From Myxococcaceae bacterium (GTDB lineage Bacteria > Myxococcota > Myxococcia > Myxococcales > Myxococcaceae), in NCBI GenBank assembly GCA_016793095.1, contig JAEUJQ010000027.1, positions 124,001-188,000 on the forward strand: DNA of 64,000 bases. The letters are read 5' to 3'. The position numbers were made by a program, and so were the translations under genes. The notes beneath the pieces are model-generated. The model did not search any database. It saw only the letters and a program-made list of their open reading frames with translations, and was not told where the DNA came from. Below, in pieces: positions 17,729-30,566 of the stretch. Within the stretch, counting starts at the first letter, position 1, and every line of letters starts with the position of its first letter.

Positions 17729-18577
17729 GTGAACGGCTCGCCGCGCTCCCGGACCGTCGGCCTCGCCGTGGTGGCCGCGGCCGCGACGTGCTGGGGCACC
17801 TGGCCGCTCTTCGTACGGCACGGAGGCCAGTCAGGGCTCGTCGTCGGCTTCCTCACCATGGCCGTGATGGCGCTGCCGTCGCTCGTCCTCGCGCGGGCCT
17901 TCCACCTGCGCGACCGGGGCGCGCTCGTCGCCCTCGTCGTGATCGGCGTGTCGGACGCAGCCAACGTCGCGCTGTACTTCTCGGCGCTCGAGGCCGGGCC
18001 GGTGGTGGTGGCGGTGTTGACGCACTACCTGGCCCCGCTGCTGGTGGCCCTCACCGCGCCGCTCCTCTTGAAGGAGCCCCGTTCGCGCCGCGCGCTCGCC
18101 GCCCTGCCGCTGATGCTCCTCGGCCTCTTCCTCGTGCTGCCGTCGGGCGCCTCCGGCTCGGCGTGGCAGGCGGGGCTCTTCGGCGGGGGCTCGGCCGTCT
18201 TCTACGCGGCGCTCGTGCTGGCCAGCCGCAGAGCCGCGGTGTCGTTCCCGCCGCTCGCGGTGACGTCGTTCCACGCCGTCGTCTCGGCGCTGTTGCTGCT
18301 GGTCGTCTTCCGGGAGCGCGTCGTGCCTACGCGCTTCGACGCGGGCCTGGGCCTGCTGCTCGCCGGCGCGACCGTCAACGGGCTCCTCGGCGCGTTCCTC
18401 TTCAACTTCGGCCTTCCACGCATCGGGGCGCAGTTGACGGGTGTGCTCACCTACCTCGAGCCGCTCGTCGCGGCGGTCATCGGCATCCTCCTGCTCGGCG
18501 AGCCCGCCACCGGCTCGACCGTGCTCGGGCTGGGGCTCGTGCTGGGGGCGGGGACGTGGACGGCGCTGGAGCGGTGA
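17729..18577 (+). CDS. EamA/DMT-family inner-membrane transporter
   Basis: A 282-residue protein with ten predicted hydrophobic helices arranged as two five-helix EamA repeats (SALEAGPVVVAVLTHYLAPL in the first, GLPRIGAQLTGVLTYLEPL in the second). DMT permeases export amino acids, nucleobases or other metabolites. The substrate is not predictable. The GTG at 17729 gives the usual N-terminus (MNGSPRSRTVGLAVVAAAAT) and follows the lipoprotein stop by 19 bp, so the two may be co-transcribed. Confidence 0.87.
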   Translation: MNGSPRSRTVGLAVVAAAATCWGTWPLFVRHGGQSGLVVGFLTMAVMALPSLVLARAFHLRDRGALVALVVIGVSDAANVALYFSALEAGPVVVAVLTHYLAPLLVALTAPLLLKEPRSRRALAALPLMLLGLFLVLPSGASGSAWQAGLFGGGSAVFYAALVLASRRAAVSFPPLAVTSFHAVVSALLLLVVFRERVVPTRFDAGLGLLLAGATVNGLLGAFLFNFGLPRIGAQLTGVLTYLEPLVAAVIGILLLGEPATGSTVLGLGLVLGAGTWTALER

Positions 18578-18608: not shown

Positions 18609-20291
18609 TCAGGGCGACGGCGCGGGGGTTGGCGTTGGCTCGGGCGGGGGCGGCGGCGGCGGCTGGTTCGGATCGGTCGCGGGCGTCTCGCTGGTGGGCG
18701 GGGGCTCCACGGGCTGCGTCGCGACCGTCTCGCTCTTCTTGCCCTTGAACTCGTAGCCGATCTCCACGTCGATGACGAAGCCGAGCTGGCTGTCGTACCG
18801 CCGCACCTCGGGGTTCAGCCGGAACGTCTGGTACGCGCGCCCGTTCACGAAGAGGAACGGCAGGATCTTGAGCCGCGCGCCCGCGTAGAAGACGGTGTCG
18901 GGCACCAGCGGGTCGATGCGGAAGATGGCCGCCGGTGAGGTGATGCCCCGCTTGTAGTAGCTGCCGAACACCTGGACGAAGTCGAGCACCGGCACCTCGA
19001 GGTGCGCGATGAGGTTGGTGTTGGGCGCGTTCGACACGCCCTCGGCGGCCAGGGTGAGGCCCACCTTGCCGGGGATGCCCCAGCTCGCCTCGAAGTAGTA
19101 GCCGAGGCGTTGGCCGAGGCCCCGCTCCAGGACGTACTGCTGGCGGGTGATGGCCCGCCGCGCGGCCTGCCCTGGCACCTCTTCACTCGCGAAGATGAAG
19201 CGCTCGATCTCGTAGAAGGTGTCGAAGTAGCTCGGCAGGTAGCGGTTCCCCAGCACGCGGAACTCACCCACCACGCGAAAGGCGTTGATGATGTCGCGGC
19301 CGACGTTGAAGCGGCCGAGCACGCCCGCGGTGAAGCCGCCGTCGCCGCCGATCATCATCGAGTAATCGACGTAGGGCTTGATGTCGATGTTCGCCGTCTT
19401 CACCACCTTCACCTCGGCGTCGATGCCCACGAGCCCGACCGGCCGCGCCTGAGACAAGAGGCGCCCCTGTGAGTCCACCTGGCGGAGCCCCGTCGCCGCG
19501 TCGGTGGTGAGCACGTACGGGGCCCTCCAGTCCGTCGCGCCGGTGACGCCGATGGACAGGGTCTTCGCGAGCAGGTTCTCGCTCTTGAGGAAGGACAGCG
19601 GCTTGATGAAGCCGAGCCCGGCCAGGGTGTTCCACTCGAGCAGATCGTTCGTGAAGAGCTCGAAGCCGCCGAAGTCGTTGTACGCGTCCACCTGCGCCGA
19701 CGCGCGCGGGTAGTCGATGTCGATGTTGGGGGCGTAGCGCCGCACCAGCGCGCCATGTCCGATGGACGAGGAGTACCGTTGACCGGCCGAGATGTAGAGG
19801 CGGTCTTCTTTTCGTCCGTACGTCACGTACTTCAGCAGGCGCCCGAAGTCGTGAACGCTGTCCCAGTCTTCCGTGCGCAGCCGACCGGCCCGCTTCGTCA
19901 GCAACGGAGACCCGGTCTCGGGGTCGGGCGCGAAGTTCACCAGCTCGAGGCGCAGGGGCACGCCGAACCCCAGCCCCAGCTTCCCCTCGAGGAAGCGCAG
20001 GTCCACCATCGGCTCGACGAGCAGGTAGAAGGCGGTCTCGAACCGATCGAGGCCCGCCGACACGCCGATGCGGTTGTTCTTCACCACCAGGCGGTCGCTG
20101 CCCAGGTAGACCGAGAGCTCGCCCTTCACGAAGCCCGCCGTCGGCGCGGTCGTCTCGGCGGCCGTCAGCGGTGGCGGCGCGAGCGGCGCGTCAGCAGGCG
20201 TCGTCGGCGCTTGGACGACGGTGGATGCGTCGGGCGCTCCGCCGTCCTCGGCTTGCGCCAGAGCCGTCACCAGCAAGACCGTCAGCAGCAT
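18609..20291 (-). CDS. Outer-membrane beta-barrel protein, unknown function
   Basis: A 560-residue protein with a short signal peptide (MLLTVLLVTALAQA), a Pro/Ala-rich segment to about residue 50, and then alternating amphipathic strands (GELSVYLGSDRLVV, FYLLVEPMVDLRF, LGYYFEASWGIPGKVGLTLA) typical of a barrel of many strands. The tail after FVIDVEIGYEFKGKKSE is a long Pro/Thr-rich extension, which is odd for a barrel and may reach the periplasm or the surface. A strong ribosome-binding site (GGGGGAG) precedes the ATG. It is the last gene of the minus-strand run with the pseudopilins and could be the outer-membrane part of that system, or independent. Confidence 0.8.
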   Translation of the reverse strand: MLLTVLLVTALAQAEDGGAPDASTVVQAPTTPADAPLAPPPLTAAETTAPTAGFVKGELSVYLGSDRLVVKNNRIGVSAGLDRFETAFYLLVEPMVDLRFLEGKLGLGFGVPLRLELVNFAPDPETGSPLLTKRAGRLRTEDWDSVHDFGRLLKYVTYGRKEDRLYISAGQRYSSSIGHGALVRRYAPNIDIDYPRASAQVDAYNDFGGFELFTNDLLEWNTLAGLGFIKPLSFLKSENLLAKTLSIGVTGATDWRAPYVLTTDAATGLRQVDSQGRLLSQARPVGLVGIDAEVKVVKTANIDIKPYVDYSMMIGGDGGFTAGVLGRFNVGRDIINAFRVVGEFRVLGNRYLPSYFDTFYEIERFIFASEEVPGQAARRAITRQQYVLERGLGQRLGYYFEASWGIPGKVGLTLAAEGVSNAPNTNLIAHLEVPVLDFVQVFGSYYKRGITSPAAIFRIDPLVPDTVFYAGARLKILPFLFVNGRAYQTFRLNPEVRRYDSQLGFVIDVEIGYEFKGKKSETVATQPVEPPPTSETPATDPNQPPPPPPPEPTPTPAPSP

Positions 20292-20333
20292 GAGCTCCCC
20301 CGTGGCACGTCGAAGCTTCGCCCGAAGCGACCG

Positions 20334-21038
20334 TCAGCGGCCGCACGGATCGATCGGCTTCAGGAACTTCGCGAGCTCGGCCTCGTCGCAGACGGTGCCG
20401 GTGAGATCGAGCTCGCTCGCAGGCTTTCCGGGCGCCGGATCGCGCATGGACCAGATGCCCACGCGCAGCTGCTCCCCGGGACAGTCGAACAGCACCGACG
20501 CGTTGAGGCCGTCCTCGACGGCCTGGTTGCCCATGCCGCCGAACTGCCCTCGCGCGGCGACGTAGTAGATGCGGCGCCCGTCCACCGTGATGTTGCCGCG
20601 CTTGATGACGTCCCTCGGATCGATGTTGACGCCGTTGCTTCGCAGGTTGCCGACGTCGCCCTCGCCCGAGATGAAGAAGCTGCGGGTGCGCTGGTTCTCG
20701 TCGTTCGCCATCAGGCGCACATACATGAAGAGCCGATCGCCGATCTCGATGCCGCCGTCGGGCAGCACCGGACGATCGGTGAGCAGCGCGGTGTCGACGA
20801 TGCCGAAGACGCTCATCGACATGGCCGGGTGGTAGCCCGGCGGAAGCTCGCCCAGCATCTTCTTCGCGTTCTCTTCCCTGGCCTTCGGGTCGGTGACGCC
20901 CGCGACCATGTCGCTCGTCTTCTTGGCGACGAAGCCGAAGAAGATGGCGAAGCCGAGGCACGTGAGGGCCGCGAAGCCCCCGCAGCCCAGCAGGACGTAC
21001 AACCAGGGGGAGCGCTGCTTCGGGCCAGCCTGTTCCAT
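20334..21038 (-). CDS. Single-pass membrane protein, unknown function
   Basis: A 234-residue protein with a short cytoplasmic N-terminus, one transmembrane helix (WLYVLLGCGGFAALTCLGFA, about residues 12-31) and a periplasmic domain of about 195 residues. The domain is beta-rich and contains a possible C-terminal disulfide (FDCPGEQ, TVCDEAE, DPCGR). I recognise no family. It is co-oriented with the barrel gene (42 bp downstream) and the Flp-like pilin (43 bp upstream), and so is probably part of the same transcript. Confidence 0.7.
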   Translation of the reverse strand: MEQAGPKQRSPWLYVLLGCGGFAALTCLGFAIFFGFVAKKTSDMVAGVTDPKAREENAKKMLGELPPGYHPAMSMSVFGIVDTALLTDRPVLPDGGIEIGDRLFMYVRLMANDENQRTRSFFISGEGDVGNLRSNGVNIDPRDVIKRGNITVDGRRIYYVAARGQFGGMGNQAVEDGLNASVLFDCPGEQLRVGIWSMRDPAPGKPASELDLTGTVCDEAELAKFLKPIDPCGR

Positions 21039-21081
21039 GCGCCTCGCTTAGCCGAACGCGCCCGCAGTGCAACCGTGGAGG

Positions 21082-21309
21082 CTACACCGCTCCCATCGCC
21101 AGCACCGTGTAGAGGCTGCGCAGGTAGATATCGAGCCCTTCGAAGAGCTTCAGGTACTGCGAGATGCCCATGACGGCCCCGCCGCCGAGGAGCAACAGGG
21201 CGTGGCTGACGATGCTGTACTCCACCATCGACTGGCCGCGGGTGAGGCGGCGGCGGAGCGCTCGGCGAAGAGCCCGGGTCTTCCTGCTCGGCGTGGGGAG
21301 GGTTCTCAT
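21082..21309 (-). CDS. Flp-like (Tad) pilin-type small protein
   Basis: A 75-residue protein with a basic leader (about 25 residues) followed by GQSMVEYSIVSHALLLLGG. This is the pattern of Flp/TadE prepilins: cleavage after Gly, Glu at mature position 5 or so, and a hydrophobic helix for filament packing. After processing it would be about 50 residues, close to Tad major pilins. It differs from a standard Flp in having a second amphipathic part (QYLKLFEGLDIYLRSLY). It could be the major pilin of the adjacent pseudopilin set, comparable to the small pilin of the M. xanthus Kil system. That link is inference. Confidence 0.7.
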   Translation of the reverse strand: MRTLPTPSRKTRALRRALRRRLTRGQSMVEYSIVSHALLLLGGGAVMGISQYLKLFEGLDIYLRSLYTVLAMGAV

Positions 21310-21322
21310 GGCCGTGTCCTCG

Positions 21323-21577
21323 TCAGAAGTTGCTCGTGTTGGTGGGTTTCTTCGGCTTGGTGCCGCTCGCACAGGACTGCCTGCACGCCTGCTCGAACTG
21401 CTTGAGGACCACGTCACAACCCGCCTTGGCCTGCGGGTCTTTCGTGGCCGCCTCCTTACACTGCTTCTCGAAGGTCTTCTGAACCGTGGCGCAGTTGCGG
21501 GCGCAATCGGGCCGACCGTTCGCGGGGGCCGCCGCACCCACCAACAACACCGCCAACGCCGGAGCGAGCCGCTTCAT
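21323..21577 (-). CDS. Small secreted protein with a palindromic six-cysteine pattern
   Basis: An 84-residue protein with a signal peptide (MKRLAPALAVLLVGAAAPANG). The mature part has cysteines spaced C-x3-C-x10-C-x13-C-x10-C-x3-C, which reads the same from either end. This fits an antiparallel helical hairpin tied by three disulfides, as in twin-CX3C proteins. The tail is Lys/Pro/Thr-rich. It overlaps the upstream gene by four bases and sits 13 bp before the pilin-like gene, so co-expression is likely. I know no family with exactly this pattern. Confidence 0.75.
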   Translation of the reverse strand: MKRLAPALAVLLVGAAAPANGRPDCARNCATVQKTFEKQCKEAATKDPQAKAGCDVVLKQFEQACRQSCASGTKPKKPTNTSNF

Positions 21578-22479
21578 GGAGACTTCCTTTCCTGCTCCAG
21601 ACTGTACATCAGGCTGACCTCGCCTGCCCCGCCCGCGATGGCAGAGACCGACTGAGAGACGCCAGGCTTCCGTGCGACGATCGAGCGACCATTGTCGGCG
21701 GACATCACCTCTTCCACCATCCACCCGTCCTTCTTCATCAGCGCGACGATCTCGTCGACCGTGCCCTTCACCTCTCCGCGGCGGCGGGTGGTGACGATGC
21801 TGCGCGTCTTCCCCTCGAGGGCCATCTGCACCACCTGCGGAGTCTGGCTCTCGGCCGGCAACACCAGGCCGGGCGGAACATGGCGGTTCCCGTCGAGCAT
21901 GCGCTGGGGCCGGGTGGCCGACAGAAACACCATCGTCTCGGTGGACTGCGGGGTGTTCTTCAGCACCGAGACCATGTGCACGATGCCCTCGGCGATGCCA
22001 CCGTCGCTCTTCTCCTCCTCGAGCCAGGCCACGTACCCCATGTCGCGGTTGAACATGTGGCTGACGATGGGGAAGCCCGCGTCGAGGTAGGTGAACTCGT
22101 AGAACGAGATGATCTGCTCAGGTTGATCGCGCGTGGCGAACCACGAGGCCACCATCGGCATGCCCATCACGCTGGAGACATCAGAGAGACGCCGCGGCTC
22201 GGCGTTCGGGTAGGGCGGAATGCCGCGCAGCGAGCGGGCGTCGGCGCCTCCAGTGGCGGTCGAGCTGACTGGCGCGCCGAGCGGCAGCAGTCGGTCAGCA
22301 GTCTCGTCAGCGTGCGCGAACATCGCCTCGGCCTCGTCCTCTTCACTGCCCGGCCTGCTCCCGAGCACCGCCCCGAAACCGACCCCCACGACCGCGGCCA
22401 GCAGCAGCAGCGCTCCGACGCTGACCGACCGACGTGCCCTCTGGGCTCCATTCACCCCGGAGCCACTGCTCTGGCTCAC
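21574..22479 (-). CDS. Membrane-anchored protein of the pseudopilin operon
   Basis: A 301-residue protein starting at a GTG that overlaps the stop of the upstream gene (GTGA). It has a short N-terminal cytoplasmic part, one transmembrane helix (VGALLLLAAVVGVGFGAVLG, about residues 26-45) and a periplasmic region of about 250 residues with a globular part (PMVASWFATRDQPEQIISFY, then EEKSDGGIAEGIVHMVSVLK). No catalytic motif or cysteine pattern is evident. Translational coupling on both sides ties it to the TadE-like genes. Function unknown. Confidence 0.72.
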   Translation of the reverse strand: MSQSSGSGVNGAQRARRSVSVGALLLLAAVVGVGFGAVLGSRPGSEEDEAEAMFAHADETADRLLPLGAPVSSTATGGADARSLRGIPPYPNAEPRRLSDVSSVMGMPMVASWFATRDQPEQIISFYEFTYLDAGFPIVSHMFNRDMGYVAWLEEEKSDGGIAEGIVHMVSVLKNTPQSTETMVFLSATRPQRMLDGNRHVPPGLVLPAESQTPQVVQMALEGKTRSIVTTRRRGEVKGTVDEIVALMKKDGWMVEEVMSADNGRSIVARKPGVSQSVSAIAGGAGEVSLMYSLEQERKSP

Positions 22480-23585
22480 TGCGCGAGTCCGAAGTACCCG
22501 TTCTGCCGGTTGTTGTAGGTCGACTGGACCCGCGTGTCGCCCCACTGGGCGGCCCAGTGATCTCTGAACTCCTGCTGCGCGCTGTTGGGCTCGAACGCCG
22601 CGGCCGCGGTGCTGAGGTTGTCGCCGACCGCGTCCTGCCGTGAGGTCCCGCGGATCATCCCCGCCTGCTCGATAGCCTTGTTCCAGTCCTCAGCCGCGGT
22701 CGTCGCGCTGCTCGCCGTGTTGTAGGCGGCACGAATTCGCGCATAGAGCGGGTGGTTCATGTACGGGCCCGATGGGGCGTTGGGGTTGATGCCCGAGATG
22801 TCGTTGCTACCGCCCTGAAGCCCCAGCGCCCATGGGTCGACGAGCATCGCATGCTCGGTCTTCGCGAGGCGCCAGTAGTTGGAGCCCAGCGACGTCTCTC
22901 CGTGCTCCTTCGCGTTCATGCGATCGTTGTGGGCTTGATCCTGCGAGGCGGGCGGAGAGCCGCCGGTCAGATCGGTCGCCGCGCCATTGCCGGTGGCCCA
23001 GCGAGACTTCATGCGGTCCTTCTTCACGCCGCTCGCGTCCACGTTGACCTCGAAGCCCTTCCCGCCCCGGAAGTTGTTCAGGAAGCTGTTCGGCAGGTAG
23101 TAGTTCATGATGCCGAGCCGCGAGCTGCACGTGACCACGCCACCTTGACCAAAACCGGCCACCGCCGACGCGGCCGCGCCAGAGGGGCTCAGCGGCTCTG
23201 AGATGTAGCAGCGCACCTGACCGCCGTACTGGGCCGCGTTCTTCCCGATCCAGCACTCGTGGGCCGTCATCGGCTTGTGGTGTTTCACGTCGTCGCAGTC
23301 GTAGTCACGATTGTACGAGTCATACGCAGCGGAGTGATCGCAGTACGTGAGCCGGCTGAAGCGCGCGTACTTGCTGTCCGCGTGGTCCCGCACCTGACTG
23401 CCATAGTCGAGGATGGTGAAGTCCCACGAGGCCTGCACGGCGGCCTCCTGGCCGTTGAGCTTCATGATCAGCATTTCCTGGAGGAAGTGCATGTACATGA
23501 TGAGCGGCACCAGGAAGATCATCGAGACCGCCAGCTCGACGGCCGCAGCGCCACGACGACGACGAGAGAGGGCGTTCATGATCAC
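22476..23585 (-). CDS. Large TadE-like pseudopilin
   Basis: A 369-residue protein with a basic N-terminus and the pilin-type segment RRRRGAAAVELAVSMIFLVP, containing Ala/Val-Glu at the position expected for class III prepilin processing. One transmembrane helix follows. The large C-terminal domain (over 300 residues) is polar and Cys-containing (LTYCDHS, YDCDDVK, HECWIGK, VRCYISE, VTCSSRL), so it would be an exported minor-pilin domain far bigger than that of ordinary TadE. The start overlaps the upstream stop as ATGA. It probably acts as a tip or minor pseudopilin. Confidence 0.75.
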   Translation of the reverse strand: MIMNALSRRRRGAAAVELAVSMIFLVPLIMYMHFLQEMLIMKLNGQEAAVQASWDFTILDYGSQVRDHADSKYARFSRLTYCDHSAAYDSYNRDYDCDDVKHHKPMTAHECWIGKNAAQYGGQVRCYISEPLSPSGAAASAVAGFGQGGVVTCSSRLGIMNYYLPNSFLNNFRGGKGFEVNVDASGVKKDRMKSRWATGNGAATDLTGGSPPASQDQAHNDRMNAKEHGETSLGSNYWRLAKTEHAMLVDPWALGLQGGSNDISGINPNAPSGPYMNHPLYARIRAAYNTASSATTAAEDWNKAIEQAGMIRGTSRQDAVGDNLSTAAAAFEPNSAQQEFRDHWAAQWGDTRVQSTYNNRQNGYFGLAQ

Positions 23586-25150
23586 TCCACTCCTTCGACG
23601 GGCGCCTGAACGTTCGCGTTCGAGTCACCGGCCATGTTGAGCACCTGCCTGAGTTCGTCACGCTTGAACGGGTGCAGCTTGGCACGCCAGAACGGGTCGA
23701 AGCCGTTGGGTGGGAGCTTCCAGTCCGCGCCGAGCTGGTGGAAGTAGGCCTTCGCCTTGCCCACCGCGATGCCCTCGGTCTTCGGCACCAGCGTGACCTT
23801 CTTCTGCTCATTGCCGATGCGCAGGTTGATGGTGCCGCTCGAGTTCACCTCAAACGCCCCACGTCCGCCCTTCTGGAGCAGCCGCAGATCCTGTCCCACC
23901 GCGCCGTAGGCGTTGGGCTGGCCCCAGTCGTTGTCCTCGTTCGGGCTGGTGTGGGCGTTGAAGCTGATCAACGTCGCCTCACCCGACACCAGCGCGATGG
24001 TCTTGAACTCGGGGTGGTTGTCGCCAACGGCGCCGTTGTGCTCGCCACCACCTTGCGACGAGAAGACACTCGAGCCGAGGATTGAGAAGCCCCGGCCATG
24101 CCGCCAGCTGACGTTGACGAAGCCAAACCCCGTGGCCGACCCGACGTTGGCGGCCGTCTCGCCGTTGTCCGATGCCTTGTTGAACTCGGTGTCGCCAACC
24201 CGTGAGGCGAACGCACCCGGAAAGTAGGTCGCGCGGTAGCTGCCCTCGCTCTGGATATCCATCATCTTCGGCGGGTTGCTGACCATGAACATGGAGGAGC
24301 CGCGGAAGTCCTGGTGGTCAAGCAGCGCACCGCCGCTCACCGCGTGATTGAAGAGGCCCCGCGCTGCGTTCGCCGCGTTCTGCATCGACTTGGAGCGCTC
24401 GGTCGGCGGGGGCCGGGACCGCGCGAACACGAGTGGCGCCGATCCACTGCACGCGTCGAGGTCGCCATCAGGGCCGTCGAGCGTGCACATGAAGTTGCTG
24501 ACGTTGATGGAGTCGAGGGCGTTCTTGTAGCGCGCCTGAGGGGCGGTCTTCGCGAGCATGTTGCGGAGGATCTGCCCGCCGTTGATCTCGCCCTTGATCT
24601 TGTTCACCAGCTGCAGCTCCTGGTCGTAGAGCGATTTCTTCGCTTCGTAGAGCTCCTTCACCGCGTCGTTGAACTGCTGCTCCTTGCCCTCGAGCTTGTC
24701 TTCGTAGTCGCCCTTCTCGCCGTAGTACTGCGCGGCGATGATGCCGGCCTGGATGGCATCCAGGCAATGAATCACGCAGGGCCCCTTCGTGCAGCACTTC
24801 GAGGTCTCCTGGAGGGCCACCAGGCCGAAGGCTATGGCGCCGCCCTGCAGCATGTTCACCTCGTGCGTGGCGATGGTGTTCCACGCGTGCAGAGACATCT
24901 GCGCGACGGTGAGGGCGGCGATGGCGCGGTTGAGCACGGCGTTGACGTTCATCGCCCGCGCCTGCAGCACCGCGACGCTGTAGGCCTGCGCATCGGCGGC
25001 CTGCTGAATGCGGATCTTCTCGTGCGCCGTGTGCGCGACGTTGAAGCCGATCACCATCATCAACGCCAACACCAGCATGGTGACGACCGACAACACCATC
25101 GTCTGGCCGCGGCGAGCCCTCGAAGCCGTGATCATCGTGCGCTCTCCCAT
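23582..25150 (-). CDS. TadG-like pilus-assembly protein
   Basis: A 522-residue protein with an N-terminal RRGQTMVLSVVTMLVLALMM segment, the hydrophobic anchor of TadG/TadE-type proteins, followed by the helical stretch with HEKIRIQQAADAQAYSVAVL that is characteristic of TadG N-terminal domains. The rest is a large exported domain with a coiled-coil-like section (KGDYEDKLEGKEQQFNDAVK) and a beta-rich C-terminal half. I see no MIDAS motif, so the von Willebrand domain of classic TadG seems absent. The ATG overlaps the previous stop by one base (TGATG). Confidence 0.78.
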   Translation of the reverse strand: MGERTMITASRARRGQTMVLSVVTMLVLALMMVIGFNVAHTAHEKIRIQQAADAQAYSVAVLQARAMNVNAVLNRAIAALTVAQMSLHAWNTIATHEVNMLQGGAIAFGLVALQETSKCCTKGPCVIHCLDAIQAGIIAAQYYGEKGDYEDKLEGKEQQFNDAVKELYEAKKSLYDQELQLVNKIKGEINGGQILRNMLAKTAPQARYKNALDSINVSNFMCTLDGPDGDLDACSGSAPLVFARSRPPPTERSKSMQNAANAARGLFNHAVSGGALLDHQDFRGSSMFMVSNPPKMMDIQSEGSYRATYFPGAFASRVGDTEFNKASDNGETAANVGSATGFGFVNVSWRHGRGFSILGSSVFSSQGGGEHNGAVGDNHPEFKTIALVSGEATLISFNAHTSPNEDNDWGQPNAYGAVGQDLRLLQKGGRGAFEVNSSGTINLRIGNEQKKVTLVPKTEGIAVGKAKAYFHQLGADWKLPPNGFDPFWRAKLHPFKRDELRQVLNMAGDSNANVQAPVEGVE

Positions 25151-26061
25151 CACCGCATCTCCCAGGGAATCCGGCACTTGTCGTCCTGCTTGCCGGTGTT
25201 GGTCGCCCGATTGCCGTTGGGCAGGTTGGACTGCGCGTTGCGGCTGAAGTTCGACTGCATGCGCATCGCGTACGAGGTGCGAATCGGCATGATGTACTTG
25301 CGCGAGTTGGCCAACCCGAGGAGGCGATCCTTCAAGGTCTTCGCTTCCGGGTTGTTGGGGTCCTTCTTCCAGCCCAGCCAGCGCATCTTCTTGGGGCTGC
25401 CCGTCTCTTCACCAACCGCCAGGCGGAACACCATCCAGTTCGCGAAGGGAATGTACATTCGGTAGAAAGCCGTCACCTGGATCTGCATCTTGGTGGCGTT
25501 GAACTGCTGCCAGCTGAAGTCCTGCGGGCCCGAGGTCGCGCCGCCAGCACCGACGCCGGGGATCGCCGGGAGGCCGGGCAGACCGCCTCCGCCGCCGCCG
25601 CTCGGGTCGTTGTCGTCGGGGGCTGCCGGCTCGGAGCCGCCCTTGCCCTGCCCCAGCGCATCGCGCGGATCGTCGAAGTTCGCGTTCTGGCTGACCTGGC
25701 TGCGCTGCGGGTTGCAGACGACGACCTCGACGAAGGGCACCCCGCTCTGGGTGTTGTTCTTCATGTTGTTCCAGGCGGTGTTGTAGGCGCCCGCACTGTC
25801 CGTCTTGTGCGGCGCGCCCACGGTGCTGTCGCGGCCGAGCACGGGCAGGAGCACCGCGAGCGCCGCCTTCTTCATGACCTCGACCTCGCCGCGGTTCACC
25901 GAGCCCGCACGCACCGCCTTGTACGCGGCATACTTCGCCATCACCCGTGCGTGGTGCATGAGCCCCAGCTGCAGGAGCCCGAGAATCAGGAACACGAAGA
26001 CGGGCATGATGATGGCCGTCTCCACCACCACCTGCCCTCGAACACGTCGCGCGCGTCGCAT
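25150..26061 (-). CDS. TadE-like pseudopilin with a glycine-rich insert
   Basis: A 303-residue protein beginning MRRARRVRGQVVVETAIIMP, which has the Gly-x4-Glu prepilin pattern and a hydrophobic helix of TadE family proteins. The exported region has a Gly/Pro-rich insert (SGGGGGGLPGLPAIPG, near residues 155-170) and a C-terminal basic, Asn-rich tail. It heads the overlapping four-gene run of pseudopilin genes. 161 bp separate it from the FHA gene upstream, so a promoter may lie there. The start at 26061 was chosen because it places the basic n-region directly before the anchor. Confidence 0.78.
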   Translation of the reverse strand: MRRARRVRGQVVVETAIIMPVFVFLILGLLQLGLMHHARVMAKYAAYKAVRAGSVNRGEVEVMKKAALAVLLPVLGRDSTVGAPHKTDSAGAYNTAWNNMKNNTQSGVPFVEVVVCNPQRSQVSQNANFDDPRDALGQGKGGSEPAAPDDNDPSGGGGGGLPGLPAIPGVGAGGATSGPQDFSWQQFNATKMQIQVTAFYRMYIPFANWMVFRLAVGEETGSPKKMRWLGWKKDPNNPEAKTLKDRLLGLANSRKYIMPIRTSYAMRMQSNFSRNAQSNLPNGNRATNTGKQDDKCRIPWEMR

Positions 26062-26222
26062 GGTGAGATTGTCTCCGCTTCGTCGAGGCCTGGCGAGGAC
26101 CGCGGCCAGGTGACCGATGGGTGTGGGGTGTGCTCCCATGCCGTGATTGTCGGCAGGGCCCTCCAACCTGGCCATCCGTCAGGTGGACGCTGAAAAAAGC
26201 AGCCTCATTCCAGCAAGTTGCG

Positions 26223-27971
26223 TCACTCGACTGGAGGAGCGCCAGCCGCCTCGAAGTCCTCGAACCCGTCGAGCTTGCGGAGCAGCGCCCTCGAGAAGTT
26301 GTAGCAGGGGTGTTCCCGCGTCGGGAAATGCTCGGGGATGTTCTCGAGCACCTGCCGGCCTTCAGCGAACGCATCGGGCCGCGTGTTCACGATGCTCTGG
26401 AACTTGATGATCATCGAGTTGCACTTGCGGTCGAGCTCGGGGCGGATCTCCTTCATGCGCGTGCGGGAGAGCGTGAGCAGCTCGGCCGGTGCGTCGGGGG
26501 TCGCCTCGAGCAACAGCCACGCCTCTCGATAGGTCTTCCACGCACGGAAGAGGTTGGCGGCGCCCACCTCGCGCATCTCCCAGGCCTTGCTCGCCCGTTC
26601 GATCTCCGCACCGGCGCGACGACGGGCCTCGTCAGCCGACATCTCGGGGACGGGGATGATCTCGACCCAGAGGTTCCAGATCTTCCACTCGTCCTCGCCA
26701 GGAGGGTTCTTCACGTTGTCGAAGATGATCAGGTTCTCGTCGCGCGGCTTGAGTACGGCGGCGGGCAGGATCAGCTCGATCTCCCGTGACTCGACGTCGA
26801 TGTTGTCCGGCGGCACGGTGCCGAGATCCTGCCCGTTGAGGTTCACCGTCACCTCGTCGGTCGAGATGTTGGCTGCCTGGTAGTGCAGCACTCCGACGAT
26901 GCGGGTGGGAGAGGTGGCGTTGAAGGTGAAGGCCTTCTGGTCGGGCGTTCGGAACGTCACCCTGCCCTCACCGAAGCTGTCTTCGATGAGCGCGCCGTCG
27001 AGCGGGAAGCTCTTCGGTTCGACGCGGTTGATGCGCTGTCGCGGCCACGCCACGTACCCTGCGAGCGCAACCGTACCGACCAGGAGGATGGTGCCGAACA
27101 CGGCGAGCAGCGCCCGCGCGCCCTTCGGCAGATCCTGCCACATCAACTGAACGCGGCCCCCCGCGGACTGCTGCAGCTGTCGGCGGAGCCGGGCCCGCTC
27201 GGCGGCTGAGAGCTCGACCTCGCCTCCCGCTGGCTCCTCACGCGCCAGGGACCGCCGCGGCGGGCGCTCGAGACCACCGCCCCGCGACGGTCGCGCCGGC
27301 GGAGCGGGCGCAGGCCGGGCGCCGCTCCCACGTGTCGTCAGCGCCTTCGGCTTCGGCACGTCCACGAACCCGGTGGCGTCGTCGTCCTCGGGCTGCTCGG
27401 CGCCGTCGTCACCCGTCGAGCCGCCGTCGTCCCCCGTCGAGCCGCCGTCATCCCCCGTCGAGCCTCCCTCATCGCCGGTGGACCCTGCCGCATCTTCATC
27501 GGCGTTCGTCGCGTCGGGCCGGGCGGCCGCGGGGTTGGAGCGGCGTTCGGCTGGCATCGCCGCCGTCGACCTCCGCGGCGGGGGGTTCTTCGTCGGCGGC
27601 CGCGTCATGTTGGGGTCCTCGGCCGGATCGTCCGCGGACTCGTCCATCGTCCCCGAGGGTGCGGGCGCCATCGTCTCATCGAGCGCGAGCTCGACCTCGA
27701 AGACGGTGTCACCGATCATGATCGCGTCGCCGCTCTTGAGCTCTCGCGGCGCCTTCACGGGCGCGTTGTTGAGGCGGGTGCCGTTGGCGCTGCCCAGATC
27801 CTCCACGTAGTACTTCCCCGCCTTCTGGAAGACGCGCGCGTGGCTCCGCGATGCGGCGCCGTCCTTGACGACGACGTCGTTGTCGGCGGTCCGCCCGAGA
27901 CGTGCCTCGTCGGTGAACGAGTACTCTTCGCCCGCCGCAGCGCCAGTCGAGACCCTGAGTTGGAAGGCCAC
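26223..27971 (-). CDS. FHA-domain single-pass membrane protein
   Basis: A 582-residue protein (GTG at 27971). The N-terminal FHA domain (about residues 8-100) has LGRTADNDVVV, SRSHARV and DLGSANGTRLN and should bind phosphothreonine. A long disordered segment follows, with a GGSTGDD repeat near residues 165-190. Next are a basic region, one transmembrane helix (ALLAVFGTILLVGTVALAGY, about residue 285) and a periplasmic domain with a beta-sandwich look plus a helical C-terminus. It could couple Ser/Thr-kinase signals to the envelope machine encoded next to it. FHA proteins occur in several secretion and pilus systems. I do not recognise the exact family. Confidence 0.8.
   Translation of the reverse strand: MAFQLRVSTGAAAGEEYSFTDEARLGRTADNDVVVKDGAASRSHARVFQKAGKYYVEDLGSANGTRLNNAPVKAPRELKSGDAIMIGDTVFEVELALDETMAPAPSGTMDESADDPAEDPNMTRPPTKNPPPRRSTAAMPAERRSNPAAARPDATNADEDAAGSTGDEGGSTGDDGGSTGDDGGSTGDDGAEQPEDDDATGFVDVPKPKALTTRGSGARPAPAPPARPSRGGGLERPPRRSLAREEPAGGEVELSAAERARLRRQLQQSAGGRVQLMWQDLPKGARALLAVFGTILLVGTVALAGYVAWPRQRINRVEPKSFPLDGALIEDSFGEGRVTFRTPDQKAFTFNATSPTRIVGVLHYQAANISTDEVTVNLNGQDLGTVPPDNIDVESREIELILPAAVLKPRDENLIIFDNVKNPPGEDEWKIWNLWVEIIPVPEMSADEARRRAGAEIERASKAWEMREVGAANLFRAWKTYREAWLLLEATPDAPAELLTLSRTRMKEIRPELDRKCNSMIIKFQSIVNTRPDAFAEGRQVLENIPEHFPTREHPCYNFSRALLRKLDGFEDFEAAGAPPVE
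27406..27480. repeat. 21-bp tandem repeat inside the FHA gene, about 3.5 copies
   Basis: A 21-bp unit containing TCGTC(A/C)CCCGTCGAGCCGCC recurs with few changes. On the coding (minus) strand it encodes the heptad GGSTGDD. This is a flexible acidic linker of the FHA protein, and its copy number may vary between strains. Confidence 0.8.
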
Positions 27972-29484: not shown

Positions 29485-29934
29485 TCAGCGCGACGCGAGC
29501 GTGAGGTAGCCGCAGTGAAAGCCGACCCCCTCGACGGGCCGCGAGCACAGCTCCCCGCGTTCGGGTGAGAAGGCCCCCTCGGTCACGGGACCCGCCTCGG
29601 CGACGATCGACGCATCGAGCCCGGCCGAGGACACAGGCGCGCCGAGCAGCAGTCGCCCTCCGCCCAGGAGGAGGAGCAGCGTCGCGGCGACCCCGACCAG
29701 CGCCCGGTTGAGCCGACCGCGAGGGCCGGGCTCGACCCGCGGCACGACCCCCTTCCACAAGTGCTGGACCTCGTCGCGGGCCGCCCGCTCGCGGAAGAGC
29801 CGGCGCTCGGTCTCGAGCCACTGCAGCTCATGACGACAGCGCGGGCAGTGCGCAGCGTGCTCGCGCAGCGCCTCGTCCGGGAGCTCGCCCTGCACGGCGG
29901 CGTCGAGGAGGTGGGTCTTCCCGCAGCGGCTCAT
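29485..29934 (-). CDS. Anti-sigma factor with a zinc-finger-like N-terminus
   Basis: A 149-residue protein with the anti-sigma HxxxCxxC motif (REHAAHCPRCRHEL, about residues 25-38) followed by a helix, one transmembrane segment (ALVGVAATLLLLLGGGRLLL, about 83-102) and a short periplasmic tail with two cysteines. Its ATG overlaps the stop of the sigma-factor gene (ATGA), the usual arrangement of an ECF sigma with its membrane-bound inhibitor. Release would follow proteolysis or a redox change at the zinc site. The signal is unknown. Confidence 0.87.
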   Translation of the reverse strand: MSRCGKTHLLDAAVQGELPDEALREHAAHCPRCRHELQWLETERRLFRERAARDEVQHLWKGVVPRVEPGPRGRLNRALVGVAATLLLLLGGGRLLLGAPVSSAGLDASIVAEAGPVTEGAFSPERGELCSRPVEGVGFHCGYLTLASR

Positions 29935-30566
29935 GTCGGCCCTCCCAGGTGAGGGAGCAACGCGGCCCGCAGCGCAAGGCGGGCCCGGTGGATCTCGTTC
30001 TTCACCATGGGCAACGTCCACCCCATGGCGGCGGCGATCTCGTCGTACGACAGCCCGTGATCGAGGCGCAGCAGCAGCGCCGCGCGGCGGGGCTCGGACA
30101 AGTCCGCGAGGGCGGCCGAGAGCTGCCCTTCGAGCTCACGATCGAGGAGGGTGCGCTCGGGATCCGGGGCGGGCAGGACCGCCGCCGGCAGCCCCTCGTC
30201 CTCGTCACTCTCGAGCGGCTGGTGCTGGCGCACCCGCTTCACCTCGAAGGCGACGTTGCGCGCGATGCCGAACACCCATGGCTTGAAGCGGTCGCGCTCT
30301 CCGAGCCTCGGGAGCTGAACGTGCGCGCGCGCGAAGGTCTCCTGGGTCGCGTCGTCAGCCGAGTCCGGCTGGCGAATGAGATCACGCAGGAAGCGGCGCA
30401 CCGCGAGCACGTGGCGCTCGAAGAGGGCCCGGAAGGCCTCGCTCTCACCCCGCTGCGCGCGCGCCACCAGCGCCTCATCGGGCGTCTGGGGAGTGATGGG
30501 CTCGGGGCGGCGCAGCAGGCGAAGCACGGCGGGAAGAGAATGCGACCTGAGGCCCTCTGGTTTCAA
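29931..30566 (-). CDS. ECF RNA polymerase sigma factor (RpoE-like)
   Basis: A 211-residue sigma factor: region 2 (QPDSADDATQETFARAHVQL, about 68-87) and region 4 (HGLSYDEIAAAMGWTLPMVK, about 170-189). It is encoded with its presumed membrane anti-sigma factor. A TTG at 30566 gives the longest product; a GTG at 30527 is an alternative, and neither has a clear ribosome-binding site. Region 2 shows the RFKPWVFGIARNVAFEVKR segment that contacts -10 DNA. Target genes are unknown, and autoregulation is common in this class. Confidence 0.9.
   Translation of the reverse strand: MKPEGLRSHSLPAVLRLLRRPEPITPQTPDEALVARAQRGESEAFRALFERHVLAVRRFLRDLIRQPDSADDATQETFARAHVQLPRLGERDRFKPWVFGIARNVAFEVKRVRQHQPLESDEDEGLPAAVLPAPDPERTLLDRELEGQLSAALADLSEPRRAALLLRLDHGLSYDEIAAAMGWTLPMVKNEIHRARLALRAALLPHLGGPT

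What the first reader, a model, noticed from the sequence alone, without database searches (positions are those of the whole stretch)
18609..27971. Pilin half of a Tad/Kil-like machine in one long operon
One strand encodes an FHA membrane protein, three oversized TadE/TadG-like pseudopilins, a coupled membrane protein, a six-cysteine protein, a Flp-like pilin, a membrane protein and an outer-membrane barrel. The ATPase, platform proteins and secretin of Tad are absent here. M. xanthus kills prey on contact with a split Tad-like Kil system that also has large pseudopilins and genes in two clusters. This set may be the second cluster of such an apparatus, or a new relative.
Basis: partly seen in the sequence, partly recalled or inferred. 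Interest (0 to 1): 0.66.

Follow-up and report, generated by a model that had tools for sequence, protein, structure and literature searches.

The report
Tip3-type tip operon for Kil pilus
These genes encode the tip of a pilus of the kind that the predatory soil bacterium Myxococcus xanthus uses to kill other bacteria on contact; the tip type is already known, but this genus seems to have kept only that one type and has wrapped it in three extra envelope genes.

Summary
In detail: nine codirectional genes, 27971 to 18609 on the minus strand, tightly packed. They are not a whole pilin half of a machine. The centre (26061-21082) is a Tip3-type tip cluster of the Kil Tad pilus: kilM, kilN, kilL, a membrane protein, a Cys-rich protein and the adapter pilin kilO. 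M. xanthus has the same order, with a KilO homologue of 59 aa, the published KilO length. A KilM tree puts the window with M. xanthus Tip3 (100/97), apart from its other three tips.

The rest of the machine is in the same genome: cluster I (FHA-ATPase KilF, secretin KilC, peptidase KilA), cluster II (KilG/H, KilB), KilP-like major pilins and a T3SS export gene set.

Two points are new here. First, the operon's FHA protein is sister to the FHA protein coded beside kilH in other genomes, and FHA, membrane protein and barrel form a trio that also occurs without a tip. Second, this genus carries only Tip3-type KilM (1-2 copies), although Tip3 was the weakest tip in single-tip M. xanthus CFU assays.

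Predation by this organism is inferred. Verdict: real, mostly explained, new member of a known kind.

The parts
26223..27971 (-). FHA-domain inner-membrane protein (582 aa, GTG start): cytosolic FHA domain, Pro/Gly-rich linker, one TM helix, periplasmic domain; sister clade of the FHA protein coded beside kilH in kil cluster II of other genomes
   Evidence: Pfam FHA 1.2e-16; 41% identity to the Myxococcus cluster II FHA protein (7e-66); tree 99/90 with kilII FHA
25150..26061 (-). KilM homologue, TadE-like minor pilin (303 aa), Tip3 type
   Evidence: Pfam TadE 6.6e-12; tree with M. xanthus Tip3 100/97
23582..25150 (-). KilN homologue, large TadG-like minor pilin with variable distal domain (about 520 aa; start ATG 25150, overlapping the kilM stop, or ATG 25135)
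   Evidence: full-length match to M. xanthus Tip3 KilN, 32-33%; shares only the N-terminal 80 residues with KilN4, 38%, hhalign 1.9e-26; model: two long helices plus beta domain, mean pLDDT 76
22476..23585 (-). KilL homologue, Cys-rich pseudopilin (369 aa)
   Evidence: order and homology in 40 loci; hhalign to KilL4 97% probability, 3.2e-11
21574..22545 (-). TM_d: one N-terminal TM helix and a two-repeat periplasmic domain (up to 323 aa; start uncertain, overlaps kilL); conserved gene of Tip3 clusters, also in M. xanthus; function unknown
21323..21577 (-). secreted six-cysteine protein (84 aa), conserved in this genus and two relatives; function unknown
   Evidence: signal peptide and spaced cysteines
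21082..21309 (-). KilO homologue, Flp adapter minor pilin (75 aa, cleavage motif RG|QSMVEY)
   Evidence: alignment; M. xanthus and Myxococcus homologues are 59 aa, the length published for KilO (PMC12075869)
20334..21038 (-). TM_e: membrane-anchored protein (234 aa), usually directly upstream of the barrel
   Evidence: found beside the barrel in about half of the barrel loci, with and without tip genes
18609..20291 (-). probable outer-membrane beta-barrel (560 aa, signal peptide, ImpL63-like by NCBIfam)
   Evidence: NCBIfam NF047543 2.8e-34; distribution; low-confidence strand-rich model

Best explanation
This is a Tip3-type tip operon of a Kil (Tad-like) pilus in an uncultivated Myxococcaceae genus. 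Shown here by sequence: KilM, KilN, KilL and KilO homologues in the conserved Tip3 order, with core machine genes collinear to both M. xanthus kil clusters elsewhere in the genome. Inferred from M. xanthus genetics and models: KilA cleaves the prepilins; KilM, KilN and KilL assemble into a spear-shaped trimer with the variable KilN domain outermost; KilO couples it to the end of a KilP filament; KilF with KilG/H extends the filament through the KilC/KilB channel on prey contact; T3SS export parts help deliver the lytic activity. Inferred, weaker: the FHA protein links contact signalling (phosphopeptide binding) to assembly of this pilus, and TM_e and the barrel supply an envelope partner specific to these genera.
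For: Syntenic Tip3 cluster in M. xanthus AM003 and Myxococcus sp.; KilO of 59 aa there; KilM tree; the KilM model recovers exactly four tips in Myxococcus, matching the published four; own cluster I and II with KilF 79%, KilC 83%, KilG/H 73-75% and KilB 81% identity and the correct domains; KilP-like pilins; T3SS export genes collinear with Myxococcus; FHA sister to kilII FHA; profile matches to KilN4 and KilL4.
Against: No expression or phenotype data; the genome is a draft of 93 contigs. The KilN distal domain gave no structural relative in the searches run, so what it binds is unknown. M. xanthus strains with Tip3 alone had no detectable activity on E. coli or B. subtilis and a minor effect on C. 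crescentus in CFU assays (PMC12075869). TM_e and the barrel can occur without a tip.
Confidence: 0.87

Rival explanations
1. The tip belongs to the Kil pilus, but in this genus the pilus serves surface attachment or cell-cell contact rather than prey killing, as most Tad pili do.
For: Only Tip3-type tips are present, and Tip3 is the weakest killing tip in single-tip M. xanthus strains in CFU assays; tips of other Tad pili are thought to serve adhesion (PMC12075869; general knowledge).
Against: The complete Kil-specific core, including FHA-fused KilF and the T3SS export genes, is retained, most of it at 70-80% identity.
Confidence: 0.2
2. Two separate functions share one transcript: the FHA-TM_e-barrel trio is an envelope or signalling system of its own into which a mobile tip cassette was inserted.
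For: The trio stands without a tip beside it in G027, G043 and G002; the barrel is found in other families of the order without a full-length Tip3 KilN; Myxococcus Tip3 lacks all three.
Against: The FHA member is sister to a core kil cluster II protein and its presence is nearly complementary to that copy, so at least FHA is Kil-related; the nine-gene order is kept in three genera.
Confidence: 0.35
3. A new machine related to Tad but distinct from Kil.
For: The ATPase, platform and secretin are not in the locus.
Against: Only one Tad-type platform pair exists in the genome and it is the Kil one; the pilin genes have Myxococcus Tip3 homologues in the same order.
Confidence: 0.02

Closest known systems
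Tip3 cluster (kilM3, kilN3, kilL3 and kilO = mxan_1150) of the M. xanthus Kil pilus, PMC12075869
   Same: Gene order kilM-kilN-kilL-TM_d-kilO; full-length KilN homology; KilO-type Flp; KilM clade
   Different: Here flanked by FHA upstream and TM_e-barrel downstream and with a six-Cys protein; KilO homologue is 75 aa instead of 59; KilN only about 33% identical
kil-gene cluster II of M. xanthus (Tip4, KilK, KilB, KilG/H, FHA proteins), PMC8460266
   Same: Core genes collinear at C85 of this genome; an FHA protein sister to the window's
   Different: No match to KilM4/N4/L4 or KilK was found in the C85 region, and the FHA gene that follows kilH in Myxococcus is missing there
TadE/TadF/TadG minor pilins of ordinary Tad loci
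   Same: TadE domain, prepilin motifs, large TadG-like protein
   Different: Much larger C-terminal regions; closest kin are Kil tips
NCBIfam ImpL63 (Leptospira)
   Same: Barrel gene matches the model in two stretches
   Different: Far below the curated cut-off (119 of 1000 bits)

Membership tests
Kil pilus Tip cluster (KilL/M/N), Tip3 type | three adjacent minor-pilin genes homologous to KilM, KilN, KilL with prepilin cleavage sites | tested here: met
Kil pilus Tip cluster (KilL/M/N), Tip3 type | groups with M. xanthus Tip3 rather than Tips 1, 2, 4 | tested here: met
   KilM tree, 100/97; Tip3 identified by its 59-aa KilO
Kil pilus Tip cluster (KilL/M/N), Tip3 type | KilO-type Flp adapter in the cluster | tested here: met
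Kil pilus Tip cluster (KilL/M/N), Tip3 type | heterotrimeric spearhead fold with alpha1N bundle | not tested
   only single-chain folding available; the KilN monomer has a long N-terminal helix and a distal beta domain
Kil system | FHA-fused KilF ATPase, KilC secretin, KilG/H platform, KilB, KilA in the genome | tested here: met
Kil system | KilP-type major pilin | tested here: met
   three copies in the own genome
Kil system | needed for contact-dependent prey killing | not testable with these tools
   needs a cultured strain and deletions
TadE/TadG (Pfam) | profile match over the curated cut-off | tested here: inconclusive
   met for KilM (45.8 bits), below cut-off for KilN (14.8 of 22.3), none for KilL

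The most novel reading that the evidence does not exclude
In these genera the Kil pilus has been rewired. A tip-linked copy of the kilH-neighbour FHA protein replaces the cluster II copy, and together with TM_e and a barrel it forms a dedicated envelope port or signalling unit for a pilus that carries only Tip3-type tips: a natural single-tip-type predator, with a prey range that the M. xanthus work did not sample.
Probability: 0.3. Interest if true: 0.65.

Novelty: new member of a known kind. Interest (0 to 1): 0.42.

Why it matters
M. xanthus carries four partly redundant tips, which makes single-tip functions hard to read. A genus whose Kil pilus appears to carry only Tip3-type tips is a natural test of what Tip3 is for, a tip with little activity on the three prey species tried in CFU assays. 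The linked FHA gene offers a concrete entry to the open question of how prey contact triggers Kil assembly, and TM_d is a conserved Tip3 gene to test next to the pilins.

Tried and rejected
One region request was mis-sized and repeated. Pfam Flp_Fap finds KilP-type pilins but not KilO/KilK, in Myxococcus either, so it cannot show absence of a KilK elsewhere in the genome. Structure searches with the KilN model gave no relative: Foldseek best E 0.39, VIA-align Z at most 7.5, mostly from long helices. The barrel model was too poor to search. I first read the window FHA as the very gene that sits beside kilH in Myxococcus, moved here. The tree makes it a sister clade, and G010 and G014 hold both copies, so an old duplication with differential loss fits better. 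I considered that the barrel is a Kil tip component and left it as unproven, because it is widely present without Tip3. Two alignment attempts failed on a stop codon.

Full report
OBSERVATION. Neighbouring genes overlap or lie within about 45 nt, except FHA-kilM (about 160 nt). Downstream, a convergent EamA transporter ends at 18577; upstream, a divergent esterase begins. The FHA and first TadE domains are significant, the second pseudopilin is a weak Tad match and the third has no Pfam hit. All four pilin-like proteins keep a type IV prepilin cleavage motif and a hydrophobic helix.

THE CORE IS A TIP3-TYPE TIP CLUSTER. A search of 79 related genomes with the TadG-like protein gave full-length matches across the family. 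Around them the same genes stand in the same order: TadE-like, TadG-like, third pseudopilin, TM_d, Flp. A scan of named genomes found this order in Myxococcus xanthus AM003 (L094), Corallococcus, Archangium, Pyxidicoccus and others; 40 of 54 loci with hits have all four large genes in order on one strand, 33 of them with the Flp downstream. PMC12075869 describes four minor-pilin 'Tip' clusters in M. xanthus, each with kilL, kilM and kilN; its tip3 cluster also carries a 59-aa Flp, KilO. The Flp in M. xanthus AM003 and in Myxococcus sp. G028 is 59 aa. A KilM model finds exactly four copies in each of these genomes, matching the four tips. In a KilM tree the window falls with M. xanthus Tip3 (100/97), apart from Tip4 and the two others. 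The window's TadG-like protein shares only the first 80 residues with KilN4 (38% identity, hhalign 1.9e-26), which agrees with the published view that tips share a base and differ at the distal end. KilL matches KilL4 by profile.

THE REST OF THE MACHINE IS IN THE GENOME. Contig C79 carries a collinear kil cluster I: KilF (FHA plus T2SSE), KilC (secretin) and KilA (peptidase A24). C85 carries cluster II: KilG, KilH and KilB. Identity to Myxococcus is 73-83% for KilC, KilF, KilG/H and KilB; KilA is lower, 36%. C85 holds the only single-domain T2SSF platform pair. Three KilP-like pilins (C51, C90, C55) and T3SS export genes collinear with Myxococcus are present. The KilM4/N4/L4 genes of Myxococcus cluster II gave no match in C85, and no Flp motif was found there.

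FHA, TM_e AND BARREL. The operon's FHA protein matches, along its length, an FHA protein coded next to kilH in Myxococcus cluster II (41%, 7e-66), also seen in M. xanthus AM003. In a 67-row tree the tip- or barrel-linked FHA proteins and the kilH-linked ones from the same family form one clade (99/90), apart from a third, unlinked paralogue. By my count family genomes have FHA within 5 kb of kilH and only two of these (G010, G014) also have a tip-linked copy; of 18 genomes with a kilH but no FHA beside it, 16 have FHA beside a tip or barrel. Related genomes and fragmented assemblies make this a pattern, not a statistic. FHA-TM_e-barrel stand together without a tip beside them in G027, G043 and G002, whereas here and in two further genera (G023, G021) the tip genes lie between FHA and TM_e. 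So the nine-gene operon looks like a tip cassette inside a three-gene cassette, one member of which is Kil-related.

ONE TIP TYPE. The seven genomes of this genus have one or two KilM genes each, with scores of the Tip3 type, whereas the complete Myxococcus genome has four. The second copy here (C19) clusters with the window, but its KilN reading frame is broken in the assembly. Divergent tips beyond the model's reach are not excluded. In M. xanthus, Tip3 alone had a minor effect on C. crescentus and none detectable on E. coli or B. subtilis in CFU assays.

MECHANISM. Shown: gene identity, order, relationships, and presence of the core. Inferred from M. xanthus (PMC8460266, PMC12075869): trimeric tip at the end of a KilP pilus, coupling by KilO, extension on prey contact, and lysis aided by the T3SS export apparatus. 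Speculative: FHA as the link to contact signalling, and the barrel as an envelope partner. The KilN distal domain gave no relative among solved structures in the searches run, so its target is unknown.

VERDICT. A real and mostly explained locus: a Tip3-type tip operon of the Kil pilus.

Noticed in passing
L052:9120-10657 (own genome C19): The second Tip3-type cluster in this genome has its kilN reading frame split in two by a frameshift, either decay or an assembly error.
   Followed up: partly
G010 (same family): This genome has 14 KilM-like and 16 KilN-like matches, a striking expansion of tips, though the assembly is fragmented (about 940 contigs).
   Followed up: no
L201, L202, L203 (own genome C51, C90, C55): Three near-identical KilP-like major pilin genes on three contigs, where Myxococcus shows one by the same search.
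   Followed up: partly
L087: A record titled Comamonas sp. KCTC 72670 carries a Myxococcus-type Tip3 cluster; the record is probably mislabelled.
   Followed up: no
own genome C36:5136-6161; G028:C1:1615795-1616835: A further FHA paralogue, unlinked to known kil genes, is present in most genomes of the family that have a kilH gene.
   Followed up: partly
G025 and G044 (2.3-2.7 Mb genomes): Small genomes of the same family keep a Tip3-type cluster with its FHA gene and a Kil platform, but lack the barrel.
   Followed up: no
window 29485-30566: A sigma-70 family (ECF-like) sigma factor with a following possible anti-sigma gene lies near the operon; any link is untested.
   Followed up: no
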